IMG/VR virus record: IMGVR_UViG_3300006810_000486
Location: 1-21,301 of that record
Strand: one strand, 5' to 3'
DNA from: a virus
DNA: 21,301 nucleotides
Under the pieces are notes generated by a model. That model ran no database searches. It had not been told where the DNA came from and saw only the letters and a program-made list of their open reading frames with translations. Both the position numbers and the translations under genes were made by a program. This document shows, in pieces, positions 1 through 21,301 of the stretch (positions are counted from its first letter, which is position 1; every line of letters begins with the position of its first letter).

Positions 1-938
1 CCGCCAAATTTGGTACGAATGTTCTCAAATCTGTTGGTAATGGTGTTGTCTATCCACACAGAGCAGAATATGATTTCACTGGTGAATTTACTATTGAATG
101 TTGGGTTTATTTTGATTCTGCACCCGAAGTTTATACAACAGCTGTTGGCGAGAAACATGTTATTTTCTCGAAAGCTAATGCAGGATTTACTGATGGCAGT
201 TGGCAGATATATGTTAAACAGGCATCCAATGGTAATCATTTCTGGTACATAGATATCCATGATACAGCAACTAGTTCCGAAACACAGTATCAACTGGATT
301 CTATTGGATCGGGATGGTCAACTAGTGGGTATGACCAACAATGGGTTCATATTGCTCTGGTAAAAGAATCTGACGGAACTCTTCACTTTTATAAAAATGG
401 AGTAGATGGTCTTTTCACTGTCCAGGACTTTGTATCTGGTAACGACATTACAAATACCACTCACCCTCTAGCTATTGGTATGCCACAAGAAAGTGGTCAA
501 GCAATTAATGATATTTACATTGATGATCTTCGTATCACAACAGATGCTAGATACACAAGTAATGGTAATTACGGCGTAGCAGATTTCACACCTCCAACAT
601 CAGCACACCCCATCAGCGGCACTACGACAACATATACACCACCTGCAACTAGCAAAGCTGGTGAGATTACATTAGGTGCAACTCCTACATGGACTGGAAC
701 AGCAGGAGTAACAGTTTCGCAACAGTCTAGTGGCAACTATCGCATGACCTTCACAAATCCATTTACTAATGCCACTGACTACTATGTCTTCACCAATCAT
801 ATGGATTATATTGGTGCTCAAAAAGTATTTGTAACCACTGGTAGATCTAATACTCATGTAGATTTCACTGTGTACAGAGAAGGTGATGGTGCATTCGTTG
901 ACACTGGATCCGTCGCAGTTCAGGTTATTGCACACTAA
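1..938 (+). CDS. Partial tail-fibre-like protein with LamG/concanavalin-like domain (5' end outside window)
   Basis: The reading frame is already open at the left edge and gives 311 residues before TAA, so the N-terminus is missing. Residues about 1-185 read as a laminin-G/concanavalin-A-like jelly-roll (LamGL/Laminin_G_3 type). The signs are FTIECWVYFDS, VIFSKANAG, WVHIALVKESDGTLHFYKNG and a closing YIDDLRITTDARYT strand. A Thr/Pro-rich linker near residues 195-215 leads to a C-terminal β-domain with GNYRMTFTNPF and a final VAVQVIAH strand, typical of trimeric phage fibre tips. The family knowledge is that such folds bind glycans and often form phage adhesins. The role as a host-recognition or decoration protein is inferred. 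It is the promoter-distal member of a late gene block that begins upstream. The jelly-roll call is firm and the exact virion location is unknown. Confidence 0.82.
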   Translation, partial: AKFGTNVLKSVGNGVVYPHRAEYDFTGEFTIECWVYFDSAPEVYTTAVGEKHVIFSKANAGFTDGSWQIYVKQASNGNHFWYIDIHDTATSSETQYQLDSIGSGWSTSGYDQQWVHIALVKESDGTLHFYKNGVDGLFTVQDFVSGNDITNTTHPLAIGMPQESGQAINDIYIDDLRITTDARYTSNGNYGVADFTPPTSAHPISGTTTTYTPPATSKAGEITLGATPTWTGTAGVTVSQQSSGNYRMTFTNPFTNATDYYVFTNHMDYIGAQKVFVTTGRSNTHVDFTVYREGDGAFVDTGSVAVQVIAH

Positions 939-939
939 T

Positions 940-947
940 CATAAATA
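940..947 (+). promoter_or_regulatory. Late promoter, CATAAATA (T4-like)
   Basis: The octamer CATAAATA lies 2 bases after the stop of the jelly-roll gene and 23 bases before the next ATG. It matches the NATAAATA consensus of T4-type late promoters, which a phage sigma factor (gp55 type) recognises. No -35 element is expected for this class. Confidence 0.6.
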
Positions 948-970
948 CACTTGATATTGATATATTGACT

Positions 971-1156
971 ATGGATACATCAAAAATGCGAGAGGAATTC
1001 CTATCCCAACTGAAAGACTACGAGTTCAAAATCAAAAGAGGCGAGGAAGAACTTGCTAAATTGAGAGAATACAAGTTGAAACTTGAGGGTGGGTTAGAAA
1101 CATTAGATCTACTAGAGAAGCAAGATGGCAGCGATTCCAGTCAACCTACTGATTGA
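971..1156 (+). CDS. Small coiled-coil protein, 61 aa, hypothetical
   Basis: This is a short, highly charged protein with no recognisable enzyme motif. Residues about 5-50 (MREEFLSQLKDYEFKIKRGE and what follows) show heptad-like spacing of Leu, Phe and Ile among Lys and Glu, consistent with one long amphipathic helix or coiled coil. The last ten residues are Ser/Asp-rich and probably disordered. An in-frame TTG lies six bases upstream, but the ATG at 971 is preferred. Neither has a clear Shine-Dalgarno sequence, and the late promoter at 940 would give a very short leader. The 3' end overlaps the next gene by 32 bases in another frame. Small coiled-coil proteins at this place could be chaperones or minor structural parts, but no function can be assigned. 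Confidence 0.7.
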   Translation: MDTSKMREEFLSQLKDYEFKIKRGEEELAKLREYKLKLEGGLETLDLLEKQDGSDSSQPTD

Positions 1157-1456
1157 TAAAGGAGCAGACTTCAGCGTTACGTTCTTTATCACCAATAAAG
1201 ATGGTACTCCACTCAACATGTCGGGGTACACTGGGCCGCTGCAATGAAGAAGAGTTATTCAGCGACCACTTCCGTTCCATTCACCTTGACGTTTGTAAAT
1301 AGAACCACAGGTGAGATTGCTTTAACGCTGACTGACGTAGAGACTTTGGCACTAGATAGACGACGTTATGTCTATGACATTGTTCTTTCCGATCCAAATG
1401 GATATAAGACCAGAGTAATTATGGGTAACGCTGAAGTAAGCCCAGGAGTTGCTTGA
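1125..1456 (+). pseudogene. Phage Ig-like/BppU-N-type structural gene split by a -1 frameshift
   Basis: Starting at ATG 1125, the first 37 codons read MAAIPVNLLIDKGADFSVTF and continue to NMSGYTG. The frame then ends at TGA 1245-1247. One frame over, the sequence continues as AAAMKKSYSATTSVPF to YVYDIVLSDPNGYKTRVIMG. Joined, the two parts make a 110-residue protein that reads like one common tailed-phage β-domain. Its pattern is a 'GADF..TF...DGTPL..SGYT' start, a 'TGEI.LTL' strand, and a final 'YVYDI.L..P.G...R...G...VSP' stretch, as in BppU-N-like proteins. The join lies in the G-run at 1233-1235, and one extra G there would restore a continuous frame. It may be a sequencing or assembly indel, a true mutation, or translational slippage. 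No canonical X-XXY-YYZ heptamer is present. The start overlaps the upstream coiled-coil gene. The evidence for one original gene is strong; the cause of the break is open. Confidence 0.8.
1244..1456 (+). CDS. 3' part of the frameshifted Ig-like gene, readable as a 70-aa ORF
   Basis: This is the downstream fragment of the split gene described at 1125. If the frameshift is real, translation could in principle begin at ATG 1244, which overlaps the upstream stop (AATGA). No Shine-Dalgarno sequence precedes it, and the product would lack the first strands of the domain. An automated caller would probably list this piece alone. The final strand YVYDIVLSDPNG and the closing GNAEVSPGVA belong to the C-terminal half of the β-domain. 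The following gene overlaps its stop codon (TGATG). Confidence 0.55.
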   Translation: MKKSYSATTSVPFTLTFVNRTTGEIALTLTDVETLALDRRRYVYDIVLSDPNGYKTRVIMGNAEVSPGVA

Positions 1457-2175
1457 TGTCCCAGTATAACGTTAGAGTTGGTGATAGTTCATATAGAGTA
1501 GGTAAGCAATTACCACAGCAGTACCAACTCGATGTAAACTACCAGATTCCGTCAAAGTCAACACAATACTCCAATCTATTGATTGACAGTATTGCATCAC
1601 AGTTTGATGGTGTTCAGGATACATTTAATATTACAGTAGATGGCGAGTCATACACTCCTCTCAATGAGGAACAGATTGCCATTTCTATTAATAATGTCAT
1701 TCTAGAACCTAAAGTTGATTACGTAGTATCCAACGATCAGATCGTATTCAACACTCCACCCACAGGTGGAGCAGCGTTCTTTGGTATTGCATATGCTACG
1801 ACTGCTGACCTGACCAGAACCCTCAACTATGTAATTGATAGTGGGTCATTCCCAATGTCAAATGGCGTGAAGGGTAACATGACCATTGATGTCACAGGAG
1901 AGATCGAGTCCTGGACTGTCATTTCTGACACTGAAGGTAATCTAGAAGTTGACATTCAAAAGTGTAGCTTTGAAGACTTCCCCAATTTCACATCTATTTG
2001 TGGTACGGAAAGACCTACTCTTGGTGTGCTAAATAATAGCGTTCAGAGAAAGAATAAAGACGACAATCTTTCAACATGGAACACCACTGTGAACGCTGGG
2101 GATATCTTCCAGTTTGAGGTCATCTACTCAATTAACATCTCAAGGTTTGTAGTTTCATTGAAACTCAAATTATAA
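1456..2175 (+). CDS. Virion structural protein, 239 aa, hypothetical
   Basis: ATG 1456 overlaps the previous stop (TGATG), and AGGAG at 1444-1448 is seven bases upstream, so this start is preferred over the TTG one codon earlier. The protein is acidic and β-rich and has no signal peptide or membrane segment. Residues about 45-115 contain a short β-module (DGVQDTFNITVDGESYTP, then NNVILEPKVDYVVSNDQIVF and PPTGGAAFFGIAY). This resembles the repeated 'small β-domain with a GTxxF-like closing strand' seen in cyanophage structural proteins. The C-terminus ends in a conserved-looking pattern, NAGDIFQFEVIYSINISRF followed by VVSLKLKL. The tight spacing with the Ig-like gene suggests co-translation. 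It is probably a minor tail or fibre-network component; that role is inferred from context. Confidence 0.75.
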   Translation: MSQYNVRVGDSSYRVGKQLPQQYQLDVNYQIPSKSTQYSNLLIDSIASQFDGVQDTFNITVDGESYTPLNEEQIAISINNVILEPKVDYVVSNDQIVFNTPPTGGAAFFGIAYATTADLTRTLNYVIDSGSFPMSNGVKGNMTIDVTGEIESWTVISDTEGNLEVDIQKCSFEDFPNFTSICGTERPTLGVLNNSVQRKNKDDNLSTWNTTVNAGDIFQFEVIYSINISRFVVSLKLKL

Positions 2176-2186
2176 ATCATACTCAT

Positions 2187-2194
2187 TATAAATA
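2187..2194 (+). promoter_or_regulatory. Late promoter, TATAAATA
   Basis: A perfect T4-type late octamer lies in the 57-base gap before the next gene, 39 bases from its ATG. A near match (TATAAATC) at 2171-2178 spans the stop of the preceding gene. The stretch between promoter and start is A-rich and carries the Shine-Dalgarno sequence AGGAG at 2221-2225. Confidence 0.75.
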
Positions 2195-2232
2195 AAAATA
2201 AACTCGCACGAAAAAAGTAGAGGAGAGTCTCC

Positions 2233-3630
2233 ATGGCATTGCTAGTAACCAATAATGGTGAAATTGAGTCTCTGCGTAATCTTCTGAATGCTAATCAGTC
2301 GATCCCCAGAAACTTAATCCTTAAACTATACACCACTGATACGTATCCTGCAGAAAGCGATACGCCTTCACAGACCAGATATTATGAGCCTTACATCGAT
2401 GGTAATGTCATCGGTTACGGTCAAGCAGTAACCACTGATTATCCTTCTGTTGTCAACAACAGAACTGATCAGGACTATTCACAACAAAGAGGTATTCTTC
2501 TGAACGGCAACCGTTGGACGATTGCTACAGAATCCTCTCCTGTTACTACTGTTAATGGCGACGGCACGGCTGGCGAGTATCTAATCACCGTTGCTTCTAA
2601 CGCAGGTATCAAGAAAGGCGACTATGTAACTGGTGGCGATGTAGGCACTGGCGCATATGTTGTTGACATTGATGGCACGACTCTCAACTTAAGTGTTAAG
2701 AACACTGGTACTTTCGCAGCACAGCCACTCTCCTTCGGTGAAGGTAGAACCACTGCTTCCTACCCAGAGCAAACTTTCACTTTCGGTGCTGCTGCTGGAG
2801 ACATCTACGGTTACTACCTAGCACGCGCAAACAACATGCCTAGCACCATTCATGGTGTTGCTGATGCTGCTTCTTGTGCTTCTGCCACCACCATCACCAA
2901 GTCTGGTATTCGTGGTCAGTTGGGCAACAAGTTCATCGAACTCCCTGCTATCACCAATACGACTGCTGCTACTGACACCTCTGGTACTTTCGAACTTGCA
3001 GTTACCTCAACTGCTGGTGTTGCAATCGGTCAGCGCGTAACTGGTGTTGGTGTTGCTGCTGGAACTCGTGTGGTTGGTATTGCTGGCACTACCGTATACA
3101 TCGATACCGCACTTTCTGCTGGCGTCAGCAACGACGTTAACTTCCTCGCAGAAGTTGCTGCTGATCTTGCTAAAGGAATGGTTGTTTCTTCCAACGCTGC
3201 TAACACTGGTCCTAATGGTCTAGATGCTGCTACCGAAATCATCGGTATCGACAGAGAGACTGCTGATGCAGATGGAACCGTTATCGTTTACCTCAACAAC
3301 GCTCTAATCGATAACATTCAGCCCACAAATAACAACGATGACATTGACTTTGACTTCTCCGAAGTCACTGCAACTGCTCACGGTCTAGTTGTTGGTGATG
3401 TAATCTACATCGATCAGGGTAGTGGTAACGCTGTTACAACCGCAGGAACATACACAATCCATTCTGTAGAAGACGCAAACACTTTTACTACAGAACCTGC
3501 ACTCGATGGCGCTGGTGATTTAACTCTCTATTCTTCGATCTTCTTCGCAGAAAGATTCACCAACGGACCATACAGCATCCAAAACGACGGCGACCAAATT
3601 AAAGTCACCCTCAACGTCAGCCTCGACTGA
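2233..3630 (+). CDS. Virion structural protein with duplicated β-modules, 465 aa
   Basis: The start is set by AGGAG at 2221-2225, seven bases from ATG, behind a perfect late promoter. The N-terminal 110 residues (ESLRNLLNANQSIPRNLIL and a NRWTIATES strand) form a head domain of unknown fold. Two copies of a roughly 50-residue module follow at about residues 115-165 and 250-305. Their shared pattern is 'a[G]I/V-x-x-G-x-x-V-T-G-x-x-V-G/A-x-G-x-x-V-V-x-I-x-G-T-T'. A third, different β-module at about residues 380-440 starts ATAHGLVVGDVIYID and ends in a TYTIHSVEDANTFT strand. Gly, Ala, Thr and Asp dominate, with no cysteine-rich or transmembrane stretch. It is the only gene between its promoter and a strong terminator, which suggests an abundant late product. 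A structural role is likely; tail fibre, whisker or capsid decoration cannot be separated by sequence alone. Confidence 0.8.
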   Translation: MALLVTNNGEIESLRNLLNANQSIPRNLILKLYTTDTYPAESDTPSQTRYYEPYIDGNVIGYGQAVTTDYPSVVNNRTDQDYSQQRGILLNGNRWTIATESSPVTTVNGDGTAGEYLITVASNAGIKKGDYVTGGDVGTGAYVVDIDGTTLNLSVKNTGTFAAQPLSFGEGRTTASYPEQTFTFGAAAGDIYGYYLARANNMPSTIHGVADAASCASATTITKSGIRGQLGNKFIELPAITNTTAATDTSGTFELAVTSTAGVAIGQRVTGVGVAAGTRVVGIAGTTVYIDTALSAGVSNDVNFLAEVAADLAKGMVVSSNAANTGPNGLDAATEIIGIDRETADADGTVIVYLNNALIDNIQPTNNNDDIDFDFSEVTATAHGLVVGDVIYIDQGSGNAVTTAGTYTIHSVEDANTFTTEPALDGAGDLTLYSSIFFAERFTNGPYSIQNDGDQIKVTLNVSLD

Positions 3631-3661
3631 TCTAATTATATTGAAATCTATATCATGGTAT

Positions 3662-3693
3662 CAGGGGGGTTGCTTGCGATCCCCCTTTTATTT
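3662..3693 (+). terminator. Rho-independent terminator after the 465-aa structural gene
   Basis: A G-run (AGGGGGG) and a matching CCCCCT arm flank an 11-base loop region and are followed by TTTATTT. This forms a stable GC stem with a U-rich tail 31 bases after the stop codon. The next gene starts only 18 bases further on. Confidence 0.8.
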
Positions 3694-3711
3694 CGCTGTA
3701 TGCTGATATAG

Positions 3712-6700
3712 ATGGTATTTTCATATGCTGGTTCTGGGTCTATATCTCCCGTAGTTGGGTTTGACTTCGGGAATATTTCCTACAGCTATACACCATCTTC
3801 AATTCTCCAATTCATTTATGTTGACCTGGGAACGCTTGGAGCGCCCACGGCAACAATCGATCATGGAAGTGTCACCGAACCTATTACTGGTCAGGAAGAC
3901 TGGGGTGACATGCGTTATGATCAACAGACAAGATTCCCATTCGGCGTCGTTAGACTAGCGAGCAGCACGACGTTTGTTGTTAAGAAGGTATTCGTTGGTA
4001 GCGGTCAACTCTTTGAGTTGGGCGAAGCATTCACAAGACTACAGGCCCCATGGATTGTTGAAGGCACTATCTCCCTCCGAGGAGAGGCGAACGCAGCGTT
4101 CTTGTATCGTTACGATGCTTCTGGCGTCCAACACGTATACGGGGACGCTGCGCCGTCTTACAGCACTCAATATGAGGGTTCTGGATCCCTATTCAGCGGT
4201 AGCTTTGCTGGTGAGGCTGTCACCAAGGTATTCCCAGAAGATTTTGATTATACGAGCATAGAAGGTTCACTTACCACGTTAACTGCTGCGGATCTGTCCA
4301 GCGGTTACAATGCGGTATATGATGGATCCATATACTATTCCAGCAGTGGATCTGGCACAACTCCTACTAATGGATTTGCTGTAGGTCCACACGTCAGATT
4401 TGGCACAGTCACCGACCCTGGATCATCTAGCAGCACAAACAGAAAAGTTGAATATACTCTAGACCTCACTGATGTTGAGGAGATCACCTTTAGACTCGTT
4501 ATGGGTAATGGGTCTAATGGTGGAGAGACTCCAGATAATGGCGAAGACCTATGGATGAGATACCTAGATACAGGTCTCTCCCTTAATGATGCATCTAGAA
4601 AATTACTAGACCACGCAGAAACTACTTACACAACTCCTGGCGATAAGACAGTTACTGTCCCAGTAGAGGCAAGAAGACCTAATCAGACCATTAGAATTTA
4701 CCAGTTAACATGGTCTGGTACATATGAATTTGATCACTACGGATTTATATCACTATCATATGGCAGCGAAGTTGTTGTCGGTGGAGATGGAGATACTCGC
4801 AAGACCTTATTTGAGATTGGTAGTGAAGCTCTAGTCCTGTCATCACTACGCCACATTGGTAGTGGTACTCTATTCAATATTGGTAGCACCCAACCACTAC
4901 GCACGTTTGCGTATGATGGTTCTGGAACTCTATTTGGATTTGGTAACGAGACCAGAAGTCTCACTTATTCATATCCTGGAACCGTCTTCTTCACATATGA
5001 AGATTATGGTCAGGTTACTGCGACCACAACACAACCTAACGAAGACTTTGGTTCTCTATTCAGAGATCCTGGTGATGATGTATACGAGATCTTTGATCGT
5101 GGCGAGATTCTCGTTAATTACACCAAGTCTCCGTTCGGATTATTCAAGCTTCGCAGCGAAACAATTGGTGCGAAACTTACACATATTACTGGTACTGGCG
5201 ACGTATTTGTCATTGGCGATGCTCGAACCAAGGGTCCACAAAATCATTACGGAGAAGGTGTATTCTTCATCGAAGGTGCATCCAAGACAACCTTCTCTCT
5301 ACAAGAGTTTGGTTCTGGATTCATCTCTACTCTATCTGGTGCAGCGCAAACATTCTCTGCAAGTCCAGAAGAAAAAGACAAGCTACTCAACTTTAGAGGT
5401 GTTGCGAGTCAGAGCAGATCTGCAATTCCTGCTATCGAAGGTCTTGATGTCAAGGTTCAGGGCGCTGGTCTCACCAGATTTATTCCAAGATACAATGGAA
5501 GAGTGCATCTGGACATCGACGGTGGTCTCGTTACAGAGAAAGTCACCCTCTCCCATCTTGGTACAGGTGTTCTGTTCGACTTTATCGGAGCAGAAGAGAG
5601 AAGAGTTTACTCTTACAACACCTCTTCGATTGACTTTATTACTCATCCTGATTACGGATCTGTTGCTAATGCAGCAGCAATCTTCGAGGATTATGGTGAC
5701 CTAGATCTTCGCTACACTGGTGAAACTGGATGGATGTCTACTCCAGACATTCGCATTGATTACCAGGGTATCCTTGATAATTACACTAACTATCCATTCG
5801 GACTCCTACCACTCAAGGGCGCAGGCGAGACATCAAAAGTTCGTGCTTTCTCTGGTTCTGGTACACTCACTGTTGGTGGCGATGTATTCATCTTCGTTCC
5901 TCCTGTATGGGACGGTCAAGGTGTTATCAGCATCAAAGGCAGTGCAGAAGAAGCATTTGTATCCAGTGAACAGTTCCAAACTCTATTCGAGTTCAAAGGA
6001 ACACTGGAGAATTTCAAGATCGGAAGAGGTTGGCAAGGAACTGGAAGAATCTCCACACTGTCTGGTGCTGCAGAAGCGTTCACTGGAAATCCAACAGAAA
6101 GAGAAGCACTGTTCTCATTCCGTGGTGTTGCACAATCCAGATTCATTCCGAGATACAACGGTCGCGTTCTTCTCGATATCGATGGTGGCCTTGTTGCAGA
6201 GAAAGTTGCCCTCGCACATCAAACGACTGGAAGTCTATTCAGCTTCGTCGGTGCAGATCAAGCGAGAGTCTACTCTTATAACAGCACATCAATTGACTTC
6301 TTCGTTCCAGTTGATCTGGGATCTGTTGCTGCTATACCATCGACGAATGCAGAACCAGTTGCTGTATACACCGAAACAGATTTTGGTACATTAGATCTTG
6401 TATATACTGGAGAGCAGGGATGGTTCTCTACTCCAGACGACAGACAAGATTGGCAGTATATTCTTGACCATGATACTACGTATCCATTTGGTCTCTTCGA
6501 GAGATTTAGTGGTACTGCAAGGATTATTATCAATCTTTCCCACTTCACTGGTGCGGAAGATGGTGGAGATCGTCTATTCAAGTTTCGTGGCGAAGTCGAA
6601 CTTTCATTCCCCAACGTACACAGTGGCACAGGTGGACTTACCGTCTTTGGTGCTGCTACATCAGAGAAGATTGGTGTTGCCGAGAGCTTCAATGTTCTGT

Positions 6701-9639
6701 TCGAGGCATCTGGTTCTGCCGATGTTCTCACGACATTTGCAGAACAGAGAGATGTCGAAATCGAACTCGATGGCAATGCAGGTGTTTCGTTTACTGGAAA
6801 CACAGTTCAGGATGCAACCATCTTCATTACTGGTGCTTCTTCCGAGATTAGATCGAGAGGATACCAAGGAACTGGATTCATTTCCACACTGTCTGGTGCT
6901 GCAGAATCCTTTACTGGCAATCCAGTCGAGAGACAGCTTCTCTTCGATATCACTGGTCAAAGTGTATTACGAGCAACCAAAGCACACGAGGGATCGGGAA
7001 CTCTATTCGGTCTTTCAGGTGCAGCAGAATCTACAACTGTTGATGAAGTATTCGCTACGTTATTCAATATTAGTGGCGCATCTACAGAAGTCAGGGCAAG
7101 AGGATACGAGGGAACTGGAAGAATCTCTACGCTGTCGGGTGTTGCAGAATCCTTCACTGCATCTCCAGACGATCTATTCTCACTCTTCGACTTTACTGGA
7201 GGAATTACTTCCCTCAAGTCTACTGTCAGAGAAACTGCACAAGGTGCTCTCTTCGATATTACTGGAGAGATTCCTGCTCCTCTACTCACATTTACAGAGC
7301 AACCAGAAGTACAGGCAAGAATCTTTGGTGCTGGTTCAGAAGCTTACGTACCAAACTGGAGTGGTCGTGGTCGTATCTCGACGCTATCTGGTGCAGCAGA
7401 ATCCATCACCATCAATGCAAGAGAAAGAGAACTTCTATTCTCTATCACTGGATCGGCCGAAGAAGCATTCTCGTTCGGAAATTACGATGCAGATTCTGCA
7501 GCGAGAATCTTTGGTTCTATTCCAAAACCACCAACTCTCGTATTCGCAGAGTCTGGATTCGGAACCTTCACTGCATCTGGAGAAGGTGAATACATCAACG
7601 TCGATGTATATGGTGGATTCGGTACAATCTTCGCCAAGGGTATTGGTGGAGAATCTGTTACCAGAAGAATCCCAGCTTTCCAGGCAGATCTTGCTCTATC
7701 TGGATTTGCTGGAAAGGCCGTCACTTTCAATCCACCAGACATTACAACACATCTCCGTATTACTGGAGAAGGTGTTGTACCAATCAGAATATTCGCGGAA
7801 GTATTCACTGTCAGACTTGCTACCGATGGTACAGCAAGAGAGCGTTTTGTTTCCAACCATATTGGCGACGGCGCTATTGCTTCTCGCGGTATCGGTGGAG
7901 AGGCAATCTCCAGAAAACTACCTGCCTTCCAGGCAGACATGTTTGTTTCTGGATTTGCTGGTCAGAGCATTACTGTCAGAGAGCAATTCTTCGGATCTCT
8001 ATTCACATTCAGTGGATCTTCTGCTCCAGAACTCCTCGCATTTGCAGAAGAACCTGAAGTACGTGTTGAAGTTAGTGGTGAGTCTAAAGTCAGATTCTCC
8101 TTGCTCCACATTGGTGAAGGTAGAATCTCTACTCTATCAGGTGCAGCAGAATCTGCTACATTCAATCCAAAAGAAAAAGAACTTCTATTCTCCTTTGGTG
8201 GTGGTTTCAGCGACATCAAGATTGTTAAGGCAGAGACCAAACAAATTGAGATCTCTGTCGATGTCGATACAGATTACAGATTTATTCCCAACTGGATCGT
8301 CGAAGGTACGATTTCTATCAGTGGTATTGCCCATACCACCAGATCTATTGTACACACAGGAGAAGGATTTATCAGCGCACTATCTGGTGCGGCAGAATCC
8401 TTTACTTACAATCCAACAGAAGATACTGCACTATTCAGCTTCTTTGGAACTGCAGCAATCAGATCTGCTGTATCGGAAGTCAGGACAATCCACACTTCCA
8501 TTTTCGCAGAAGATGTCAAGGTATTTATTATCAAATCTTTCACTGGATCTGGTGTTATCCCAGTATCTGGACAGAAAGAAGAGAGAACAGCGAGAGCATA
8601 CGAAGGCACTGGTGTTATCAGCACTTTGTCTGGTTCTGCCGAATCCTTTACCGTCAACCCAGAAGATCTGTTCAGTCTCTTCAACGTTCTTGGTGTTGCG
8701 GATACAAGACCAATCAAGGTATTCACCAAGATTGGTTCTGGTGCTTTGTTCACAAGCTTCACTGCTGGCGAAGCGAGAACAATCTCTGTTCCTGTCAACG
8801 TTCCTTCTCAAGAATCCAAGGGACTCTTCAAGCTGGAGGGTTCATCTCCAGAGTCGTTTACTATTCCATACGAAGGATCTGGATCTCTATTCTCCTTCGA
8901 GGGACTGGAAGAAAGAAGAACCTTTGCACACGAAACCGAAGGAACAGTCACAGTTTCTGGTATTGCTTCTACACCAAGAACCAGAGACTACGAAGGATCT
9001 GGATCTCTGTTCTCGTTTATCGAAGCAGAATCTGCTGTCAGATTTGTTCCTTCTACCCGCACAGTTCTCTTCGATATTACTGGCGAGTCTGTATTCAAAA
9101 CAACTCAAGCACACGAAGGAACGGGAAGTCTCTTCACAACCTTCACTGCTGGAGAATCCAGAACATTCAAGCTTCCAGAACATCTGGTTCCAAACCTTAT
9201 CTTCAAAGGTGCGGCAACGATCAAGAATACTTACCAGTATCAGGGTCAGAACAATCTGGAGATTACAGGTTCTGCACAAGAATCGTTTACTCCTACAGTA
9301 TACGAGGGAGATGTTCGTCTCAAGACATCTGGAGAATCTGTACAGAAATTCGTTACAGCAGAGACGAGTCAGGGTGGAACAATCAAGGTTCGTGGCGAAT
9401 CTTCGGTACTCCTCACCAACGCATTCGACACTTATACCCTTTTCGATATCAATGGTATTGCGAAGGTCAATGTATCTTCTGTCTTTGCTGGATCTGGAAC
9501 AGTATTTACTTTCGTCAGTTCCGAGGAAGTACAACCAGACAAAGAGTATCAAGGATCTGGAACAATTACTCTACGCGGTGAATCCGTAGATAAGAAGGTC
9601 AATGTTGCTCCAGAACGCACTTACGGATGGATTATTTAA
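3712..9639 (+). CDS. Giant repeat-rich adhesin-like structural protein, 1975 aa
   Basis: The protein is almost entirely short β-repeats built on 'G-[ST]-G-x-L-F-x-[FIS]-x-G-x-[AS]-E'. Eight blocks contain the strong motif I-S-[TA]-L-S-G-x-A-[EQ], at residues about 538, 780, 1057, 1138, 1222, 1472, 1554 and 1636. Their spacing is near 82, or about three times that. Within a block the unit is about 21 residues, which suits a β-solenoid or a string of small β-hairpins. Four diverged copies of a 'D-Y/L-G-x-V ... PFG-L' module occur in the first 930 residues. A distinct insert lies at about residues 181-352. No signal peptide, catalytic motif or membrane segment is visible. An in-frame TAG directly precedes ATG 3712 and the next in-frame ATG is about 65 codons later, so this start is favoured despite the lack of a Shine-Dalgarno sequence. 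It is probably a long fibre or baseplate-attached adhesin; the role is inferred. Confidence 0.85.
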   Translation: MVFSYAGSGSISPVVGFDFGNISYSYTPSSILQFIYVDLGTLGAPTATIDHGSVTEPITGQEDWGDMRYDQQTRFPFGVVRLASSTTFVVKKVFVGSGQLFELGEAFTRLQAPWIVEGTISLRGEANAAFLYRYDASGVQHVYGDAAPSYSTQYEGSGSLFSGSFAGEAVTKVFPEDFDYTSIEGSLTTLTAADLSSGYNAVYDGSIYYSSSGSGTTPTNGFAVGPHVRFGTVTDPGSSSSTNRKVEYTLDLTDVEEITFRLVMGNGSNGGETPDNGEDLWMRYLDTGLSLNDASRKLLDHAETTYTTPGDKTVTVPVEARRPNQTIRIYQLTWSGTYEFDHYGFISLSYGSEVVVGGDGDTRKTLFEIGSEALVLSSLRHIGSGTLFNIGSTQPLRTFAYDGSGTLFGFGNETRSLTYSYPGTVFFTYEDYGQVTATTTQPNEDFGSLFRDPGDDVYEIFDRGEILVNYTKSPFGLFKLRSETIGAKLTHITGTGDVFVIGDARTKGPQNHYGEGVFFIEGASKTTFSLQEFGSGFISTLSGAAQTFSASPEEKDKLLNFRGVASQSRSAIPAIEGLDVKVQGAGLTRFIPRYNGRVHLDIDGGLVTEKVTLSHLGTGVLFDFIGAEERRVYSYNTSSIDFITHPDYGSVANAAAIFEDYGDLDLRYTGETGWMSTPDIRIDYQGILDNYTNYPFGLLPLKGAGETSKVRAFSGSGTLTVGGDVFIFVPPVWDGQGVISIKGSAEEAFVSSEQFQTLFEFKGTLENFKIGRGWQGTGRISTLSGAAEAFTGNPTEREALFSFRGVAQSRFIPRYNGRVLLDIDGGLVAEKVALAHQTTGSLFSFVGADQARVYSYNSTSIDFFVPVDLGSVAAIPSTNAEPVAVYTETDFGTLDLVYTGEQGWFSTPDDRQDWQYILDHDTTYPFGLFERFSGTARIIINLSHFTGAEDGGDRLFKFRGEVELSFPNVHSGTGGLTVFGAATSEKIGVAESFNVLFEASGSADVLTTFAEQRDVEIELDGNAGVSFTGNTVQDATIFITGASSEIRSRGYQGTGFISTLSGAAESFTGNPVERQLLFDITGQSVLRATKAHEGSGTLFGLSGAAESTTVDEVFATLFNISGASTEVRARGYEGTGRISTLSGVAESFTASPDDLFSLFDFTGGITSLKSTVRETAQGALFDITGEIPAPLLTFTEQPEVQARIFGAGSEAYVPNWSGRGRISTLSGAAESITINARERELLFSITGSAEEAFSFGNYDADSAARIFGSIPKPPTLVFAESGFGTFTASGEGEYINVDVYGGFGTIFAKGIGGESVTRRIPAFQADLALSGFAGKAVTFNPPDITTHLRITGEGVVPIRIFAEVFTVRLATDGTARERFVSNHIGDGAIASRGIGGEAISRKLPAFQADMFVSGFAGQSITVREQFFGSLFTFSGSSAPELLAFAEEPEVRVEVSGESKVRFSLLHIGEGRISTLSGAAESATFNPKEKELLFSFGGGFSDIKIVKAETKQIEISVDVDTDYRFIPNWIVEGTISISGIAHTTRSIVHTGEGFISALSGAAESFTYNPTEDTALFSFFGTAAIRSAVSEVRTIHTSIFAEDVKVFIIKSFTGSGVIPVSGQKEERTARAYEGTGVISTLSGSAESFTVNPEDLFSLFNVLGVADTRPIKVFTKIGSGALFTSFTAGEARTISVPVNVPSQESKGLFKLEGSSPESFTIPYEGSGSLFSFEGLEERRTFAHETEGTVTVSGIASTPRTRDYEGSGSLFSFIEAESAVRFVPSTRTVLFDITGESVFKTTQAHEGTGSLFTTFTAGESRTFKLPEHLVPNLIFKGAATIKNTYQYQGQNNLEITGSAQESFTPTVYEGDVRLKTSGESVQKFVTAETSQGGTIKVRGESSVLLTNAFDTYTLFDINGIAKVNVSSVFAGSGTVFTFVSSEEVQPDKEYQGSGTITLRGESVDKKVNVAPERTYGWII
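3772..6510 (+). repeat. Four diverged copies of a DYG/PFGL module within the giant gene
   Basis: The copies lie at about 3772-3957, 4958-5156, 5602-5820 and 6265-6510. Each begins with a Tyr/Ser-rich strand (SYSYTPSS, TYSYPGTV, VYSYNTSSIDF, VYSYNSTSIDF). Each passes through one or two D-[YLW]-G-x-[LVMD] turns and ends with [FYS]-PFG-[VL]. Copies 3 and 4 belong to a longer duplication that also includes the preceding RFIPRYNGRV..LDIDGGLV segment, at about 5477 and 6143. This points to a recent internal duplication there and older ones upstream. Confidence 0.75.
4252..4768 (+). other. Non-repeat β-domain inserted in the giant repeat protein
   Basis: Residues about 181-352 of the giant protein break the 21-residue rhythm. 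They show VEYTLDLTDVEEITFRLVMG, then NGGETPDNGEDLWMRY, a TVTVPVEARRPNQTIRIYQ strand pair and a FDHYGFISLSYG end. The pattern suggests a compact β-sandwich, somewhat like reelin-type or carbohydrate-binding modules. The GN-x-x-NGGE-x-P-x-x-GE-x-L stretch would be its signature. The domain borders are approximate and its function is unknown. Confidence 0.5.
5323..8634 (+). repeat. Eight-copy ISTLSGAAES repeat blocks in the giant gene
   Basis: Coding copies of the I-S-[TA]-L-S-G motif begin at 5323, 6049, 6880, 7123, 7375, 8125, 8371 and 8617. Successive distances in residues are 242, 277, 81, 84, 250, 82 and 82, i.e. a period near 82 or about three times it. The motif is usually preceded by an aromatic or His residue, E/Q-G-[TE]-G, and followed by S-F-T-x-N-P-x-E and then L-F-x-[FI]-x-G. 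DNA conservation is also high (ACTCTATCTGGTGCAGC-like), so homologous recombination between copies is plausible. Confidence 0.85.
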
Positions 9640-14607: not shown

Positions 14608-15600
14608 ATGTCAAGTTTAAGAGATTTACTAGATTACGCGAGTATTGAGGACCTTCCTCCCATTACCGCGTTCGGTCAACCAGGAGTCATGTTTACCTTT
14701 AGAGGTGTCGCATGTGCTCAAGGAAACGGTTGCGACACTTATGAAAGTCAGAGACTATGCTGGTGTGTACCCCCACTAGACGCAACTAAAATGCGTGTAG
14801 AAATTTGGGGTGGTGGTGGAATGGGCGGGGCTCCTCGCTGTACTTCTACTGGTGTTCCTGGATATTCTGGAGAATACAACAGTAGAATCCTTTGTGCAGA
14901 TGAGTTAAACATTGCCAATTTTAACAATCAGTGCTATGTAATGTGTGTTGGCATGGCAAACTGCTGTGCAGCTTGTCATGGTGGGTGTATGGGTTGTAAG
15001 ACCTATGTTCAAGGTCCTGGACTATCTGGATTCTGTGCCGAAGGTGGATATGGCGGTAAGTACGAAGGTGTTTGCTCCGTATTTAACAACTCTCGTTATG
15101 GTTGTAACACCGTAATCGGTAACAACTGCTGTAGCAACTGTGGATGTACACCAGCATATTGCTGCTGGCACGAAACAGAAAATGCTCCTTTCAACAAAGC
15201 AGATAGAGACGCAAAAGAAGCCCTTGGCATTTGCTATAATGGTATTACAGCTTCTTATGTTGTCTCCGACTGCTGCTGCCGTAAGATTGGTGGTAAGAAG
15301 ACTTACACCCCTTTACCTGGCGGTTTGATTGGTAGATTTGGTGGATACATGGTTAATGGTTTCATGTGTGATGACTGCTATCTAGATCCTAATCACTACA
15401 GATGTGTTGATTGTGATAGAGCAAATAGTAGTGGTGGTATTTTCCCTGGTTTAGGATCTGCCACATGTGGATGGGGTGGTCCTCCTGGAATGGGAGGCGG
15501 TCAAGGATACCTCGGATGTTGTTATCACTGCTCCTGCGGTGGCACTGGCGCTACTGGTGCAGTTAGATTCACTCTATACCCATCTACTACAGGAGGTTGA
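14608..15600 (+). CDS. Cysteine/glycine-rich late protein, paralogue A, 330 aa
   Basis: GGAGG at 14594-14598 sets the start. The protein has 35 cysteines in 330 residues, often as CC, CCC or CxxC, in a glycine-rich frame. Shared landmarks with the next two genes are an LRDLL start, EIWGGGG near residue 67, C-Y-x-M-C-V-G, and GCKTYVQGPGLSGFCAEGGYGG at about 130-150 (here with the K-Y-E spacing after it). A GG[PM]-type turn series and a final GATGAVRFTLYP strand also match. The general plan resembles glycine-rich phage fibre-tip domains (Gly_rich_2-like or gp38-like), but the cysteine load is unusual. The cysteines could bind metal or form disulphides after release. No signal peptide is present. 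An adhesin or tail-tip role is inferred from location and the glycine-rich frame. Confidence 0.82.
   Translation: MSSLRDLLDYASIEDLPPITAFGQPGVMFTFRGVACAQGNGCDTYESQRLCWCVPPLDATKMRVEIWGGGGMGGAPRCTSTGVPGYSGEYNSRILCADELNIANFNNQCYVMCVGMANCCAACHGGCMGCKTYVQGPGLSGFCAEGGYGGKYEGVCSVFNNSRYGCNTVIGNNCCSNCGCTPAYCCWHETENAPFNKADRDAKEALGICYNGITASYVVSDCCCRKIGGKKTYTPLPGGLIGRFGGYMVNGFMCDDCYLDPNHYRCVDCDRANSSGGIFPGLGSATCGWGGPPGMGGGQGYLGCCYHCSCGGTGATGAVRFTLYPSTTGG
15591..15596 (+). promoter_or_regulatory. Strong ribosome-binding site AGGAGG for paralogue B
   Basis: A full AGGAGG lies inside the last codons of paralogue A, seven bases before ATG 15604. Only three bases separate the two genes, so translation is probably coupled and the start is well determined. 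Confidence 0.85.
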
Positions 15601-15603
15601 TAA

Positions 15604-16512
15604 ATGGCTGGCATTAGGAATCTATTGGGAAAAGAATTTAGGTCTTCGGTTGGTGCTCTTGGCACAACAGTAGAACCAATTCATGACGGCAAAGTCTTTA
15701 TTTTTGCAGCAAACCACAGATCATGTTGCTGCAACTGTGCTACAAACAATTGTATCTGTAACTGGTGTGTTCCCTGCGGCGTTACAAAAGTAACGTTCGA
15801 GATCTGGGGTGGTGGTGGTGCAGGCGCTGGTGCTTGCTGCTGCATGAATGGCATTCCTGGCACCACTGGTGCTTATTCACGTAAGACTCTGACTTATCCA
15901 GAAGTCGAAGGTGGTTACTGCTATCAACTGTGTGTTGGAACTGCAACAAGTAACTCAAATAGCTTCCGTGGTGTTAGAGGTTGCCATACTTACATCACTG
16001 GTCCTGGACTGTCTAACTTCTGTGCAGAAGGAGGATATGGAGGTTGTACTTGCTGCGGCATCTGGTCAAACTCTGCCTGCTACAGTAAGGATAGAATTGA
16101 TTTCTGCTCTGATGGTAATTGCCTTGGATATGGTCCCCCAGCATATGGTGGAGATTTGAACATCGCAGGTAGAGCAGGATTCATCAGAAACTACTGCTCG
16201 GAGCAATGCGCTGTTAAAGCAATGCTACCATATCCACCAAGAATTGTTGATCATAGTGGTGGTTGGTCTACTACACACTATTGCACCCGTGTTACTTGTG
16301 GAGAGCAAAACCATTGCTTTATCAGTTTGCCATACTCTGGTTGGCCAAACTGTTACTCTTCTGGTATTCCTGGTTTCGGCAACGCATCCGCTATTACTTG
16401 TGGATCTTCGTGTCAATGTGGAACCCCAGGATCTGGCGGTATGATCCGCATCACGTATTGCTCTTGCTGGATGGGTGTCAATGCAGACTGTTCACTACAT
16501 ATGTGTAATTAA
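15604..16512 (+). CDS. Cysteine/glycine-rich late protein, paralogue B, 302 aa
   Basis: It has 34 cysteines in 302 residues, including a dense N-terminal cluster of eight within residues 41-61 (CCCNCATNNCICNWCVPCG). It shares the IRNLLG start, W-C-V-P-C-G leading to FEIWGGGG near residue 67, CYQLCVG, GCHTYITGPGLSNFCAEGGY, and a C-terminal GSGGMIRITY strand with its neighbours. Unlike paralogue A, it ends in a short extra tail (CSCWMGVNADCSLHMCN). The three-base gap and shared architecture point to tandem duplication. Function is unknown; a glycine-rich adhesin or virion surface protein is the most likely class. Confidence 0.82.
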   Translation: MAGIRNLLGKEFRSSVGALGTTVEPIHDGKVFIFAANHRSCCCNCATNNCICNWCVPCGVTKVTFEIWGGGGAGAGACCCMNGIPGTTGAYSRKTLTYPEVEGGYCYQLCVGTATSNSNSFRGVRGCHTYITGPGLSNFCAEGGYGGCTCCGIWSNSACYSKDRIDFCSDGNCLGYGPPAYGGDLNIAGRAGFIRNYCSEQCAVKAMLPYPPRIVDHSGGWSTTHYCTRVTCGEQNHCFISLPYSGWPNCYSSGIPGFGNASAITCGSSCQCGTPGSGGMIRITYCSCWMGVNADCSLHMCN

Positions 16513-16526
16513 TAGGATAAACAACA

Positions 16527-17429
16527 ATGGCTACTAACTTACGAGACTTATTAGGTGTAGTGACCTCCGATGCTGCGGCTTCAGGTTACGATCCAGATAC
16601 ACTTCTACCCACATATCCTTTAGAGGATTATAACGTTCAGTATTTTACTCCTGGTGCATATATGTCACAGGGTTATGATACGCCTATAAGTGATATCGAT
16701 AGTTATCACTATACGTATTATCCCGACTGGACAGTTCCTACTGGCGCTACCCAGATTCTCTTCGAGCTCTGGGGTGGTGGTGGAGGAGGAGCAGTATCTT
16801 GCTGCTGTTCTCATGGTCCTGGTGGTGGTGCTGGAGCATATGCATATAAGATTCTCAAGGGATCTGAAGTAGTCGCTGGATGTCAATATCAACTGTGTGT
16901 TGCATCAGCAACTTGTAGAACTGCATCTAAATCTGGACGTAGAGGATGCAAGACTTATATCACTGGTTTTGGTCTTACTAATTTTTGTGCTGATGGTGGT
17001 TTTGGTGGTTGCAACTACTGCCAACTTCAAGGTTGCACTTGGTTGACACCAAGAAGAAATGAATCCGAATGTCAGTATGGTTGCTGTGCTATTTTCTATG
17101 GTGCTGATGGTGGTTCGGTTGGTCTACCTGGAGCATACTATGCAATCTGTTATGGTAACAGATGCCACAACAAAATCTTCTTCCCATACCCTGGTGGTCT
17201 AGCAAGTTCCCAAGGTGGATATGTATCTGATAGACATCATTGTGGTCACTGCAATTGCCACTATTGCGAGTGGTGCCGTGCCAAATCTCTAGTTGGTTTC
17301 GGACAAGGTAACTTCTGTCATGCTACTTCTATTCCTGGTTTCGGTGGTGTCACAGCATCTACTTGCGAAAACGGTCCAGTATGTGGATCAGGTGGTCATG
17401 GTGGCATGATCAGAATCAGCTACAAGTGA
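16527..17429 (+). CDS. Cysteine/glycine-rich late protein, paralogue C, 300 aa
   Basis: A weak AGGA at 16514-16517 precedes the ATG. It has 24 cysteines, none in the first 90 residues. That N-terminal part is instead Tyr/Asp/Pro-rich (MATNLRDLLGVV, then DTPISDIDSYHYTYYPDWTV). From residue about 78 it rejoins the family: FELWGGGGGG, CCC, GGGAGAY, CQYQLCV, GCKTYITGFGLTNFCADGGF, FPYPGGLASSQGGY, CxxCxCxxCxxC at about 239-249, then IPGFGG and GMIRISY at the C-terminus. Loss or gain of the N-terminal cysteine cluster marks it as the most diverged copy at that end. It is the last gene of the block, with a separate late promoter 39 bases after its stop. Its role is inferred to be structural or adhesive. 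Confidence 0.82.
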   Translation: MATNLRDLLGVVTSDAAASGYDPDTLLPTYPLEDYNVQYFTPGAYMSQGYDTPISDIDSYHYTYYPDWTVPTGATQILFELWGGGGGGAVSCCCSHGPGGGAGAYAYKILKGSEVVAGCQYQLCVASATCRTASKSGRRGCKTYITGFGLTNFCADGGFGGCNYCQLQGCTWLTPRRNESECQYGCCAIFYGADGGSVGLPGAYYAICYGNRCHNKIFFPYPGGLASSQGGYVSDRHHCGHCNCHYCEWCRAKSLVGFGQGNFCHATSIPGFGGVTASTCENGPVCGSGGHGGMIRISYK

Positions 17430-18316: not shown

Positions 18317-19456
18317 ATGAGACCAAAATCATTTTTTATCAACGGCGGTGCGGGTCGTGTGATTTGTTCAATTCCTGCTTTAGAGAAGTATCAAGAAGAC
18401 CATCCAGACGAAGACTTCGTAATTGTTTGCGAGGGGGGAAGTGACTTCTTCAGAGGACATCCTACTCTATACAGCAAGGTTTATGATCACTGGCATAAGA
18501 ATTTGTTTCAGGATAAACTGAAGGATACGGACATTTGCACTCCAGAACCATATCGTGTCTGGGAGTATTATAACCAAAAGTGCAATCTGTCACAAGCATT
18601 TGACATTGCAATCAACAATAAAGGGATTAGAGATCTTCCTGATCCTACGATTAAATTAACTAGAGAAGAATCTGTGCGCGGCAAGATGATTGTTGCCGAG
18701 GTTCGTGCTAGGACCAATAAGAAAAAGACTGTTGTTTTCCAACCATTTGGTAGAGGAGTAACAGCACAAGGTAATTTAATCTACGACTCTTCGGGTAGAA
18801 GTTTTGAATACTACAATGCAGTTAGTATTGTAAGGAGACTACAGAAGAAGTATTCTGTTATCTGGTTTAGTGAACTTCCTCTAGATGTAGAAGGACTGGG
18901 ACTGAAAGATACTGTTTCGATTCCTGCGTCTCAACAGGTAGATCTTCGTACTTGGGCAGGTATTATCAGAGAAGCAGATCTAGTCCTTGGCTGTGATTCT
19001 GTAGGACAACACATTGCTAAATCAATGAACAAACCAGCAGTTGTTGTGGTTGGATCTACTTTTGCTGAAAACATTTCATATCCAGACTGGGAAAAATTTG
19101 ATATTCTGGACATGGGAGAGGGTCAAAGAATTTATGATCCCATTCGCGTTTCTATGGACGATGAATCCCACAGAGCAAATGATGGTATAATGGCTATGAA
19201 TGACAAAATTGAAGAAGTCATTCTGAAGTCTGTTGATAAGTTGATGAACAAATACTATCGCAAACCAGAGCAAGAAGTAATTCTTCCTCAAGAATGGGGT
19301 TGTGGCCCTCAAGGATGTGATATGCCACAAGCACCAGTTCAACAAGCAGAACCAAAAAAGGAGAAACCAAACATCTTTAGTGACATGCAAGTGACACAGG
19401 ATGCCATAGCATCAAAACCATCAGGGTTTTCAAATTCCGTTAAGATTGCAAAATAA
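18317..19456 (+). CDS. Glycosyltransferase, family 9-like (ADP-heptosyltransferase type), 379 aa
   Basis: The N-terminus reads FFINGGAGRVICSIPALEKY, a variant of the family-9 'G-x-G-D-x-x-x-x-[TS]-x-P-[AL]-[LI]-x-x-[LY]' loop, followed by FVIVCEGGSDFF. The second half has VLGCDSVGQHIAKSMNKPAV and VVVGSTFAENISYPD. This matches the GT9 'D-[ST]-G-x-x-H-[LI]-A-x-[AS]-[LM]-x-x-P' donor-site region, with D227 and H232. The likely reaction is transfer of a heptose or related sugar from an ADP-sugar to a glycan in the cytoplasm. A 65-residue Gln/Pro/Lys-rich tail (from about residue 315, with CGPQGCDMPQAP) extends beyond the GT-B fold. Only a weak AGAG precedes ATG. It heads a cassette with a carbamoyltransferase and an HldE-like enzyme. 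The fold is clear; the substrate is inferred. Confidence 0.8.
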   Translation: MRPKSFFINGGAGRVICSIPALEKYQEDHPDEDFVIVCEGGSDFFRGHPTLYSKVYDHWHKNLFQDKLKDTDICTPEPYRVWEYYNQKCNLSQAFDIAINNKGIRDLPDPTIKLTREESVRGKMIVAEVRARTNKKKTVVFQPFGRGVTAQGNLIYDSSGRSFEYYNAVSIVRRLQKKYSVIWFSELPLDVEGLGLKDTVSIPASQQVDLRTWAGIIREADLVLGCDSVGQHIAKSMNKPAVVVVGSTFAENISYPDWEKFDILDMGEGQRIYDPIRVSMDDESHRANDGIMAMNDKIEEVILKSVDKLMNKYYRKPEQEVILPQEWGCGPQGCDMPQAPVQQAEPKKEKPNIFSDMQVTQDAIASKPSGFSNSVKIAK

Positions 19457-19469
19457 TTGAGGTATTAAA

Positions 19470-21164
19470 ATGACAACTATTCTCGCTATTGCCAGAGGAC
19501 ACAATGGCAGTACGACTTTGCTGAAAGATGGTGAAGTGGTTTTTTATCTAGAAGAAGAAAGACTTTCTAGATTCAAGTATGACGGAACACCTTTGATGGG
19601 TATTCTGAAAGCGTTTGAATACACAGACACCATTGATCATTTGGTGGTCTGCCATACTCATCGTCATGGACCTGTTGCTGACTGGACAGGTGATGATATT
19701 TACGAGACATTAGTGAGAAAGATTGCTCGTAAAAAGTTTGAGTTCAAAACTCATTTCATTGATAATATTCATCATGAAATGCACGCTGCGTGTGGATTCT
19801 ATAACTCTGGATTTGACGAAGCGGCGTGTGTGATTGCTGATGGAGCTGGTAGTTTCTTGGAACTAGGAGAACCTATCGGAGATGTTGGGTACGAGTTTGA
19901 AACTATCTTTGACGTTGATTATGAGAGTAAATTTGATACTGTCTGGAAGCATATTGGAACCAGACAACCCTGCGGTATGTTTAAACAGGATAGTGTTTAT
20001 GTAACCGAGTATCCTGGTCATACCAAAATGTATGAGGCAGTAACACAATACTGCGGATTCCCTGCTATCGAAGCGGGTAAGCTCATGGGACTGTCTCCTT
20101 ATGGTAAAGAGAATGATGAACTACCATCGTTCTTTGATTCGACTGGCGAGTGGGGAAATCGTGAATTAATTATTCCAACTTACCCTAATGCTGCTCAAAT
20201 TAATTGGCAACGTTATGACATCTTGAGGGATGATGTCACTCGCCACAAAGAAGGTGATTTTACTGAAGTTCAAAAAGATCTTGCTTACAAGATTCAGAAA
20301 GAAACATCAGAAAGAATGGTCACCTTGATTCGTAGAGCACACGAATTGACTGGTAAAACTAATATTGTTATTTGCGGTGGTTACGGTCTCAACTGCGTTG
20401 CAAACTACAAGTATTGGAAAGAGTTCCCTGATCTGAACATCTACTGTGAGCCAATTTCTCACGATGGTGGTACTTCAATCGGTGGTGCTAAATGGGTTTG
20501 GCACCAACTCAATGAAATCAAGAAATCGTCTGGTAAGCAGGAATCTGTTTACTATGGACCACAGTATGATCCTTCTACATATGAATCTGATCTTGGTGAT
20601 CTCGAAGTTAGCGATACTTCTTACGGTGATGTCGCACAACTCATCCGTGATGGTAATATCGTGACTATCTACCAAGGTCGCTCTGAAGGTGGTCCTCGTG
20701 CTCTCGGTAACAGATCTATCCTTTTTGATCCCACGATCAAGGACGGAAAAGATTTTGTCAACACTGTCAAGCGCCGTGAATGGTTCAGACCATTTGCCTG
20801 CTCTATCAAGAAAGAAGCAGTTCATGACTGGTTCGACCTTGCTGGCCGTGAAGAAACTCCCCACATGATGTATGCTGTCAAGTGTCATGATGGCGTAGAA
20901 GAGAAGATCCCTTCTGTCATCCATGTTGACAACACTTGCAGAATTCAGACTGTAACCCCAGAGCAAAATGAGCATTACTATAATCTCATTGATGCTTTCG
21001 AGAAGTTGAGCGAAGTTCCCATCTTGTTCAACACCTCATTTAACCTCGGAGGAGAACCTCTAGTTGAAACTATTGAAGATGCTGTAAAGACTCTCACCAA
21101 TAGTGACATTGAATATCTGTATCTCCCAGAGATTCAGAAACTTGTTTATGTACCCAACGAATGA
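19470..21164 (+). CDS. NodU/CmcH-family O-carbamoyltransferase, 564 aa
   Basis: GAGG at 19459-19462 sets the start. The N-terminal Kae1-like domain opens with [20 protein letters not shown] and [11 protein letters not shown]. It carries the metal-site histidines H101 and H105 ([19 protein letters not shown]), D124 (IADGAGS) and D332 ([12 protein letters not shown]), plus LMGLSPYGK and [11 protein letters not shown]. The C-terminal YrdC-like domain has [33 protein letters not shown] and [13 protein letters not shown]. Length and motif order fit the family of about 550-620 residues, which transfers carbamoyl from carbamoyl phosphate (through a carbamoyl-adenylate) onto a sugar hydroxyl. The stop overlaps the next start as ATGA. 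With the flanking glycosyltransferase and heptose-type activator it probably decorates a surface or fibre sugar. All key residues seen are present, so activity is likely. Confidence 0.93.
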
Positions 21165-21301
21165 AAATCTCTTTTGTAAATGGATGTTTTGATGTGCTCC
21201 ATCCAGGGCACATCGAACTCCTGAAGTATGCCAGGTCTCTTGGTGACTATCTCATCGTTGCTATCGATTCCGACAGGAAGGTGGCAGAGATGAAGGGTCC
21301 C
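21161..21301 (+). CDS. Partial HldE/RfaE-type sugar nucleotidyltransferase (3' end outside window)
   Basis: Only 47 codons are present, and the gene continues past the right edge. The start reads [20 protein letters not shown] and [20 protein letters not shown]. This is the cytidylyltransferase-like fold with the HxGH nucleotide site (H14 to H17), as in the C-terminal half of HldE, RfaE domain II or TagD-like enzymes. In bacteria these join AMP (or CMP) to a sugar phosphate; the HldE type makes ADP-heptose. The ATGA overlap with the carbamoyltransferase implies one operon and coupled translation. It would supply an activated donor for the upstream family-9 enzyme. Whether the donor is ADP-heptose or a related ADP- or CDP-sugar cannot be told from the fragment. 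Confidence 0.88.

What the first reader, a model, noticed from the sequence alone, without database searches (positions are those of the whole stretch)
1218..1250. Single-base frameshift splits a conserved Ig-like phage domain
The frame from ATG 1125 and the frame from ATG 1244 encode the two halves of one common β-domain. The join is at the GGG of 1233-1235, and reading that last G twice (or adding one G) gives a seamless 110-residue protein. There is no canonical slippery heptamer or obvious downstream pseudoknot. This is therefore either a homopolymer error in the assembly, a real inactivating mutation, or an unusual -1 event.
Basis: partly seen in the sequence, partly recalled or inferred. 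Interest (0 to 1): 0.5.

Follow-up and report, generated by a model that had tools for sequence, protein, structure and literature searches.

The report
Frame-broken fibre-collar gene in one contig
A small tail gene of a known phage family is cut in two by one missing base in this single environmental DNA assembly, while the close relatives examined have it whole, so it is most likely a sequencing slip or a chance mutation and not a new mechanism.

Summary
Window 1125-1247 (40 aa) and 1244-1456 (70 aa) are two halves of one 110-residue protein; the frame changes at the GGG of 1233-1235. The window is a 21.3-kb virus record resembling Synechococcus phage S-CAM3. The gene is one open frame in 80 of 80 testable, non-redundant viral contigs (42 distinct sequences) drawn from two capped hit lists; two more contigs are cut off there. 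The exact split string was found in no other listed viral contig. The nearest relative, L004, is 99.9% identical over 4,361 columns, with this as the only indel; it and two others have four Gs where the window has three. Sixteen other window ORFs are open. The protein is an LtfC/p132-like Ig-fold domain, the fibre collar of T5-like phages. No conserved split, slippery heptamer or unusual RNA fold was found, so programmed frameshifting is rejected. What remains is a consensus error (about 60%) or a recent inactivating mutation (about 35%); only reads can separate them. A frame error in the same gene of the T5 record has been suggested in print. Low interest.

The parts
1125..1247 (+). N-terminal fragment (40 aa) of an LtfC/p132-like collar protein gene; ends at TGA 1245-1247
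   Evidence: phrog_1084 positions 3-40, E 4.4e-9
1233..1235 (+). GGG where the frame changes; the three relatives with the same local sequence have a run of four G
1244..1456 (+). C-terminal fragment (70 aa) of the same gene; its ATG overlaps the TGA of the first fragment (ATGA)
   Evidence: phrog_1084 positions 42-114 E 3.3e-18 and phrog_3304 E 1.3e-14 for the frame from 1232
971..1156 (+). upstream small gene (phrog_580) overlapping the start of the split gene by 32 bases; open; the same overlap is seen in S-CAM3
   Evidence: ATG 971 read (one search lists a TTG start at 965)
1456..2175 (+). downstream virion structural protein gene (phrog_10330), open; its ATG 1456 overlaps the stop codon 1454-1456
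3..938 (+). upstream tail-fibre-like gene (its 5' end lies outside the window); phrog_16570, unknown function
   Evidence: the gene in the same place in S-CAM1 is annotated putative proximal tail fiber protein

Best explanation
The gene at 1125-1456 is an ordinary member of the LtfC/p132-like (phrog_1084/phrog_3304) Ig-fold family, thought to be the collar to which tail fibres attach. In this one contig it reads one base short in a run of Gs. The likeliest cause is a one-base error in the read consensus or assembly of this metagenomic contig, because the allele is private to the window among the sequences examined and would remove a conserved structural protein. The real phage very probably encodes the 110-residue protein in one frame. 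Shown here: the split, its absence from the relatives examined, the fold and the family of the intact homologue. Inferred: that the missing base is technical, and the collar function in this phage.
For: 80 of 80 testable non-redundant contigs are open across the junction (drawn from lists capped at the best 80 of 108 hits in each). No other listed viral contig carries the window's exact 22-base junction string (the tool says records very near the window may be left out). L004 is 99.9% identical over 4,361 columns with this as the only indel. The change lies where only the window's own subclade has a four-G run: 3 of 42 distinct gene sequences have it, with the same flanks as the window. The window has another private change nearby: A at 2975 gives Asp where 79 of 79 aligned records (S-CAM3 present three times) have G, giving Gly. 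The three substitutions against L004 are 3 non-synonymous and 0 synonymous, as errors or unselected new mutations would be. Homopolymer indels inside genes do occur in this collection: L053 has 4 against its sibling L052. A frame error in the LtfC gene of the T5 genome record has been suggested in print (PMC10713586, table footnote, passage seen).
Against: Sixteen other ORFs of the window (20,307 coding bases, 133 homopolymers of four or more; the first is open at the window's left edge) have no inner stop, and 13 of the 16 differ by 0 or 3 bases in length from the S-CAM3 gene in the same place, so the contig is not generally error-rich. L053's pattern (4 indels in 8 kb) is that of a noisy record and is not seen here. 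Among 80 pairs of contigs at 99.84% identity or more, 72 show no indel, 7 involve L053 and 1 is the window with L004, so single-indel errors look rare. Two of the three substitutions against L004 (4297, 5291) carry a base shared with other relatives, so they are not private to the window. No reads or coverage could be examined.
Confidence: 0.6

Rival explanations
1. A real, recent inactivating mutation by slippage at the G run. The collar protein is lost, and virions would lack the attached side fibres (inferred from T5-like phages) or depend on weak re-initiation at the overlapping ATGA for the 70-aa remainder.
For: The other ORFs of the window are open. Homopolymer slippage occurs in vivo too (general knowledge). 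In T5-like phages LtfC is needed for fibre attachment, yet the fibres are dispensable on rough hosts (PMC10713586, passages); the fibreless T5-hd1 mutant lacks the p132 collar (PMC10038345, passages). Loss can therefore be tolerated in some phages.
Against: The allele is private among the contigs searched, and the gene is intact in 80 of 80 testable relatives. The junction falls inside the third predicted strand (residues 36-42), so neither half holds the whole fold.
Confidence: 0.35
2. A programmed or leaky -1 frameshift makes the 110-aa protein from the split frames.
For: The two frames overlap in the right order and reading G1235 twice gives the full protein.
Against: No examined relative shares the split (0 of 80). 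There is no X XXY YYZ heptamer (zero-frame codons TAC ACT GGG CCG CTG CAA TGA). RNA folding is no better than shuffles: z -0.10 for 1225-1330 and -0.30 for 1236-1300 (pseudoknots not tested).
Confidence: 0.02
3. Two real separate genes: the ATGA overlap couples translation of two half-domains that assemble as a split protein.
For: TGA 1245-1247 overlaps ATG 1244-1246, an arrangement that often couples translation (general knowledge).
Against: The ATG is simply the codon for Met41 of the intact protein. Residue 41 is Leu or Phe in 4 of the 16 aligned proteins, all distant ones, so it is not conserved as a start. No examined relative has two genes here.
Confidence: 0.03

Closest known systems
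LtfC of phage DT57C / p132 of phage T5 (PDB 8hqz, 7qg9; PHROG phrog_3304)
   Same: Same Ig-like beta-sandwich (VIA-align Z 12.0 over 108-109 residues; Foldseek E 3.9e-8 and 2.0e-7). Profile match over residues 7-109 (PDB 8hqz_Q, E 0.0087; 0.033 for the best stretch alone). Coded near fibre or tail genes. A frame error in the T5 copy has been suggested in print.
   Different: 110 instead of 140 residues. Carried by an S-CAM3-like cyanophage (Kyanoviridae), not a T5-like siphovirus. In the window the frame is broken. Ring formation is not shown.
S-CAM3 C421010_091 (AOV59074.1) and homologues in marine phages (phrog_1084)
   Same: Same gene, same neighbours, same 32-base overlap with the small upstream gene; 99% identical to the L004 protein.
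   Different: Intact in S-CAM3, split in the window.
BppU N-terminal domain (PF10651; TP901-1 ORF48)
   Same: Beta-sandwich; weak profile match for 11 of 16 members, best E 0.012; 3uh8 at Z 7.8.
   Different: Below the Pfam cut-off (14.4 against 23.1 bits for L004); a Z under 8 may mean only a common arrangement.

Membership tests
LtfC/p132-like fibre collar protein (phrog_3304, PF23926) | match to the PHROG family profile over most of its domain | tested here: met
   intact homologue L004: phrog_3304 E 1.6e-23 (profile positions 7-113 of 177) and phrog_1084 E 5.4e-33; the window halves match separately
LtfC/p132-like fibre collar protein (phrog_3304, PF23926) | Pfam PF23926 curated score (27 bits) | tested here: not met
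   19.3 bits for L004, E 0.0017; 11 of 16 members match at E up to 0.1. So it is called LtfC-like by PHROG and fold, not filed as a Pfam member.
LtfC/p132-like fibre collar protein (phrog_3304, PF23926) | single Ig-like beta-sandwich domain like 8hqz/7qg9 | tested here: met
   AlphaFold2 model of the L004 homologue, best of five models at mean pLDDT 85.4, the others 84.6 to 53.0; the top Foldseek and VIA matches are 8hqz and 7qg9
LtfC/p132-like fibre collar protein (phrog_3304, PF23926) | gene close to a tail-fibre gene | tested here: met
   two genes downstream of a gene annotated putative proximal tail fiber in S-CAM1; tail-fibre PHROGs are among the matches of the S-CAM3 gene, whose best match has unknown function. 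The annotation itself is unproven.
LtfC/p132-like fibre collar protein (phrog_3304, PF23926) | dodecameric ring round the tail that anchors fibres | not testable with these tools
   needs virion structure
programmed -1 ribosomal frameshift gene | split conserved among relatives | tested here: not met
   0 of 80 testable contigs split
programmed -1 ribosomal frameshift gene | X XXY YYZ slippery heptamer in frame | tested here: not met
   read directly from window 1227-1247
programmed -1 ribosomal frameshift gene | stable downstream stem-loop or pseudoknot | tested here: inconclusive
   minimum free energy no better than shuffles, z -0.10 and -0.30; pseudoknots not tested

The most novel reading that the evidence does not exclude
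The allele is real and was at high frequency in the sampled population: a natural cyanophage has shed its fibre-collar protein by slippage at a G run. This would be a wild counterpart of fibreless T5 mutants, perhaps selected on hosts where the side fibres are not needed, with the 70-aa remainder made by coupled re-initiation at ATGA.
Probability: 0.1. Interest if true: 0.35.

Novelty: not a real feature. Interest (0 to 1): 0.1.

Why it matters
It matters little as a mechanism. It is useful as an annotation warning: a one-base difference makes a conserved 110-aa structural gene vanish into two short ORFs. The gene itself is worth naming, since the fold search ties an ORF that GenBank records of S-CAM3 leave as hypothetical to the T5 fibre collar, in line with the RefSeq name. 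If the allele were real, it would show natural loss of fibre attachment in a marine phage.

Tried and rejected
Programmed frameshifting: rejected by comparison and by sequence. Two separate genes: rejected. A generally low-quality contig: not supported, since 16 other ORFs are open. A sibling contig for the right-hand part of the window, to count further indels: two scans, each capped at the best 80, listed no near-identical copy of the query proteins (best 96% and 95% identity), so the error rate there could not be measured. Pfam with the separate halves found nothing at E up to 0.1. Paper searches on cyanophage fibre frameshifts and on homopolymer indels in viral contigs gave listings only, with no title that evidently bears on this case; none of those papers was opened. 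The T5 record itself was not checked for the reported frame error; that rests on the footnote seen. In one search my first test for 'open across the junction' was too loose (it passed the window itself); it was replaced by the strict test. Non-redundancy there: 81 contigs by name (78, plus L163, L164 and L166), of which L163 was dropped because both its flank pieces lie in L081. The pair table holds only pairs that blastn gave at 98.5% identity or more over at least 1,500 columns, and the pairs are not independent. In one search, families missing from the list are not thereby excluded.

Full report
What the window is. It is a 21,301-base virus record. Its closest annotated relative is Synechococcus phage S-CAM3 (Kyanoviridae), with 86% of the window covered at 88.9% identity and the genes compared in the same order. 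It holds a tail/fibre module followed by a carbamoyltransferase gene and the start of what may be a nucleotidyltransferase gene, so named in S-CAM1.

The observation. ORFs 1125-1247 and 1244-1456 are present. Both match the same PHROG family, phrog_1084, in consecutive parts (3-40 and 42-114). The intact homologue aligns in two frames that meet at G1235. The homologous stretch is 333 bases in S-CAM3 and 332 in the window.

Relatives. A scan for the C-half gave 108 relatives, of which the best 80 were kept. A second scan with an alignment of 16 intact proteins again kept 80 of 108, mostly the same contigs. Of the first 80, 78 have the whole gene in one open frame of 110 codons and 2 (L012, L069) are cut by the contig end; two further non-redundant ones from the second scan are also open. 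So 80 of 80 testable are open, with 42 distinct gene sequences. In phage records, tblastn with the intact protein found 143 of 50,697 records, 141 of them covering at least 80% of it in one place; each of the 60 rows listed is a single piece, and 83 records were not listed. The window's exact junction string occurs in 0 other viral contigs, the four-G version in 3; records very near the window may be left out by the tool.

The nearest pair. L004 (IMGVR_UViG_3300006868_001806) matches window 1094-5453 with 3 substitutions and one gap, the gap being this one. L003 and L002 also have four Gs. None of the other 39 distinct sequences has four Gs there, so the long run is peculiar to the window's own subclade. 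This is what slippage at a homopolymer, in the phage or in the sequencing, would give.

Error or mutation? For error: the allele is private; a second private non-synonymous change lies at 2975 (79 of 79 aligned records differ, S-CAM3 counted three times); the differences from L004 are 0 synonymous and 3 non-synonymous, although at 4297 and 5291 the window's base is shared with other relatives; the gene is intact in the relatives examined; and homopolymer indels in genes exist in the collection (L053, 4 in 8.2 kb). Against error: 16 other ORFs (133 homopolymers of four or more in 20,307 bases) have no inner stop, and 72 of 80 near-identical contig pairs show no indel, 7 involve L053, and the last is the window's own. 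I put error at 0.6 and real mutation at 0.35; these odds are judgement. Only reads can decide.

What the gene is. The intact homologue is predicted as an Ig-like beta-sandwich (best model mean pLDDT 85.4, pTM 0.72, alignment of 16; the other four models 84.6, 69.9, 65.9 and 53.0). The best solved matches are the DT57C baseplate (8hqz, Foldseek E 3.9e-8) and the T5 tail tip (7qg9, 2.0e-7), with Z 12.0 for both in a second look, the next row being 9.7. That the matching 7qg9 chains are p132 is inferred from the T5 tail-tip paper; 8hqz_Q is named L-shaped tail fiber assembly. By sequence 8hqz_Q is the only PDB match up to E 10, E 0.0087, and phrog_3304, 'L-shaped tail fiber protein assembly', matches at 1.6e-23. 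Pfam LtfC (PF23926) is hit below its cut-off (19.3 of 27 bits). In T5 and DT57C this protein is a dodecameric ring that anchors the side fibres (passages of PMC10713586 and PMC10038345). One paper states that p140 and p132 genes mark T5-like phages only; the profile and fold matches here, and the RefSeq names, show a related domain in cyanophages as well, but a ring is not shown.

Consequence if real. The break falls within predicted strand 36-42, so neither part holds the whole sandwich. The TGA of the first part overlaps the ATG of the second (ATGA), which could let ribosomes re-initiate and go on to the next gene, whose ATG overlaps the stop at 1454-1456. This is inference.

Frameshifting. 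No examined relative is split, no slippery heptamer is present, and the RNA folds no better than its shuffles. Rejected.

A precedent. A footnote in the DT57C paper gives the T5 counterpart as gp135 and gp136 and says the DT57C sequence suggests a frame-shift error in the T5 genome record. I did not check the T5 record myself.

Verdict. The split is real in the letters, ordinary in nature, and most likely technical.

Noticed in passing
window 2975: A (Asp codon) in the window where all 79 aligned related records, S-CAM3 counted three times, have G (Gly): a second private change near the frame break.
   Followed up: partly
window 655-3867 against L003: 42 of 48 substitutions against L003 lie at or left of position 1327 and 6 to the right, which suggests a recombination boundary close to or within the split gene.
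   Followed up: no
window 3712-9639: A 1,975-aa repeat-rich ORF; the S-CAM3 gene in the same place is 7,677 bases (about 2,558 aa), so repeat number seems to vary.
   Followed up: no
window 14608-17429: Three consecutive genes of 330, 302 and 300 aa that are unusually rich in Cys and Gly and look like paralogues by eye; the first matches phrog_4205, unknown function.
   Followed up: no
L053 4484, 4863, 8037, 8072: Contig IMGVR_UViG_3300050343_000067 has four one-base homopolymer insertions against its sibling L052, and two genes that are whole in L052 are broken in it; probably a noisy record.
   Followed up: partly
window 18317-21301: Carbamoyltransferase gene (19470-21164) flanked by a gene of unknown function (phrog_8954) and the start of what may be the nucleotidyltransferase gene named in S-CAM1: a possible sugar-modification cassette.
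   Followed up: no
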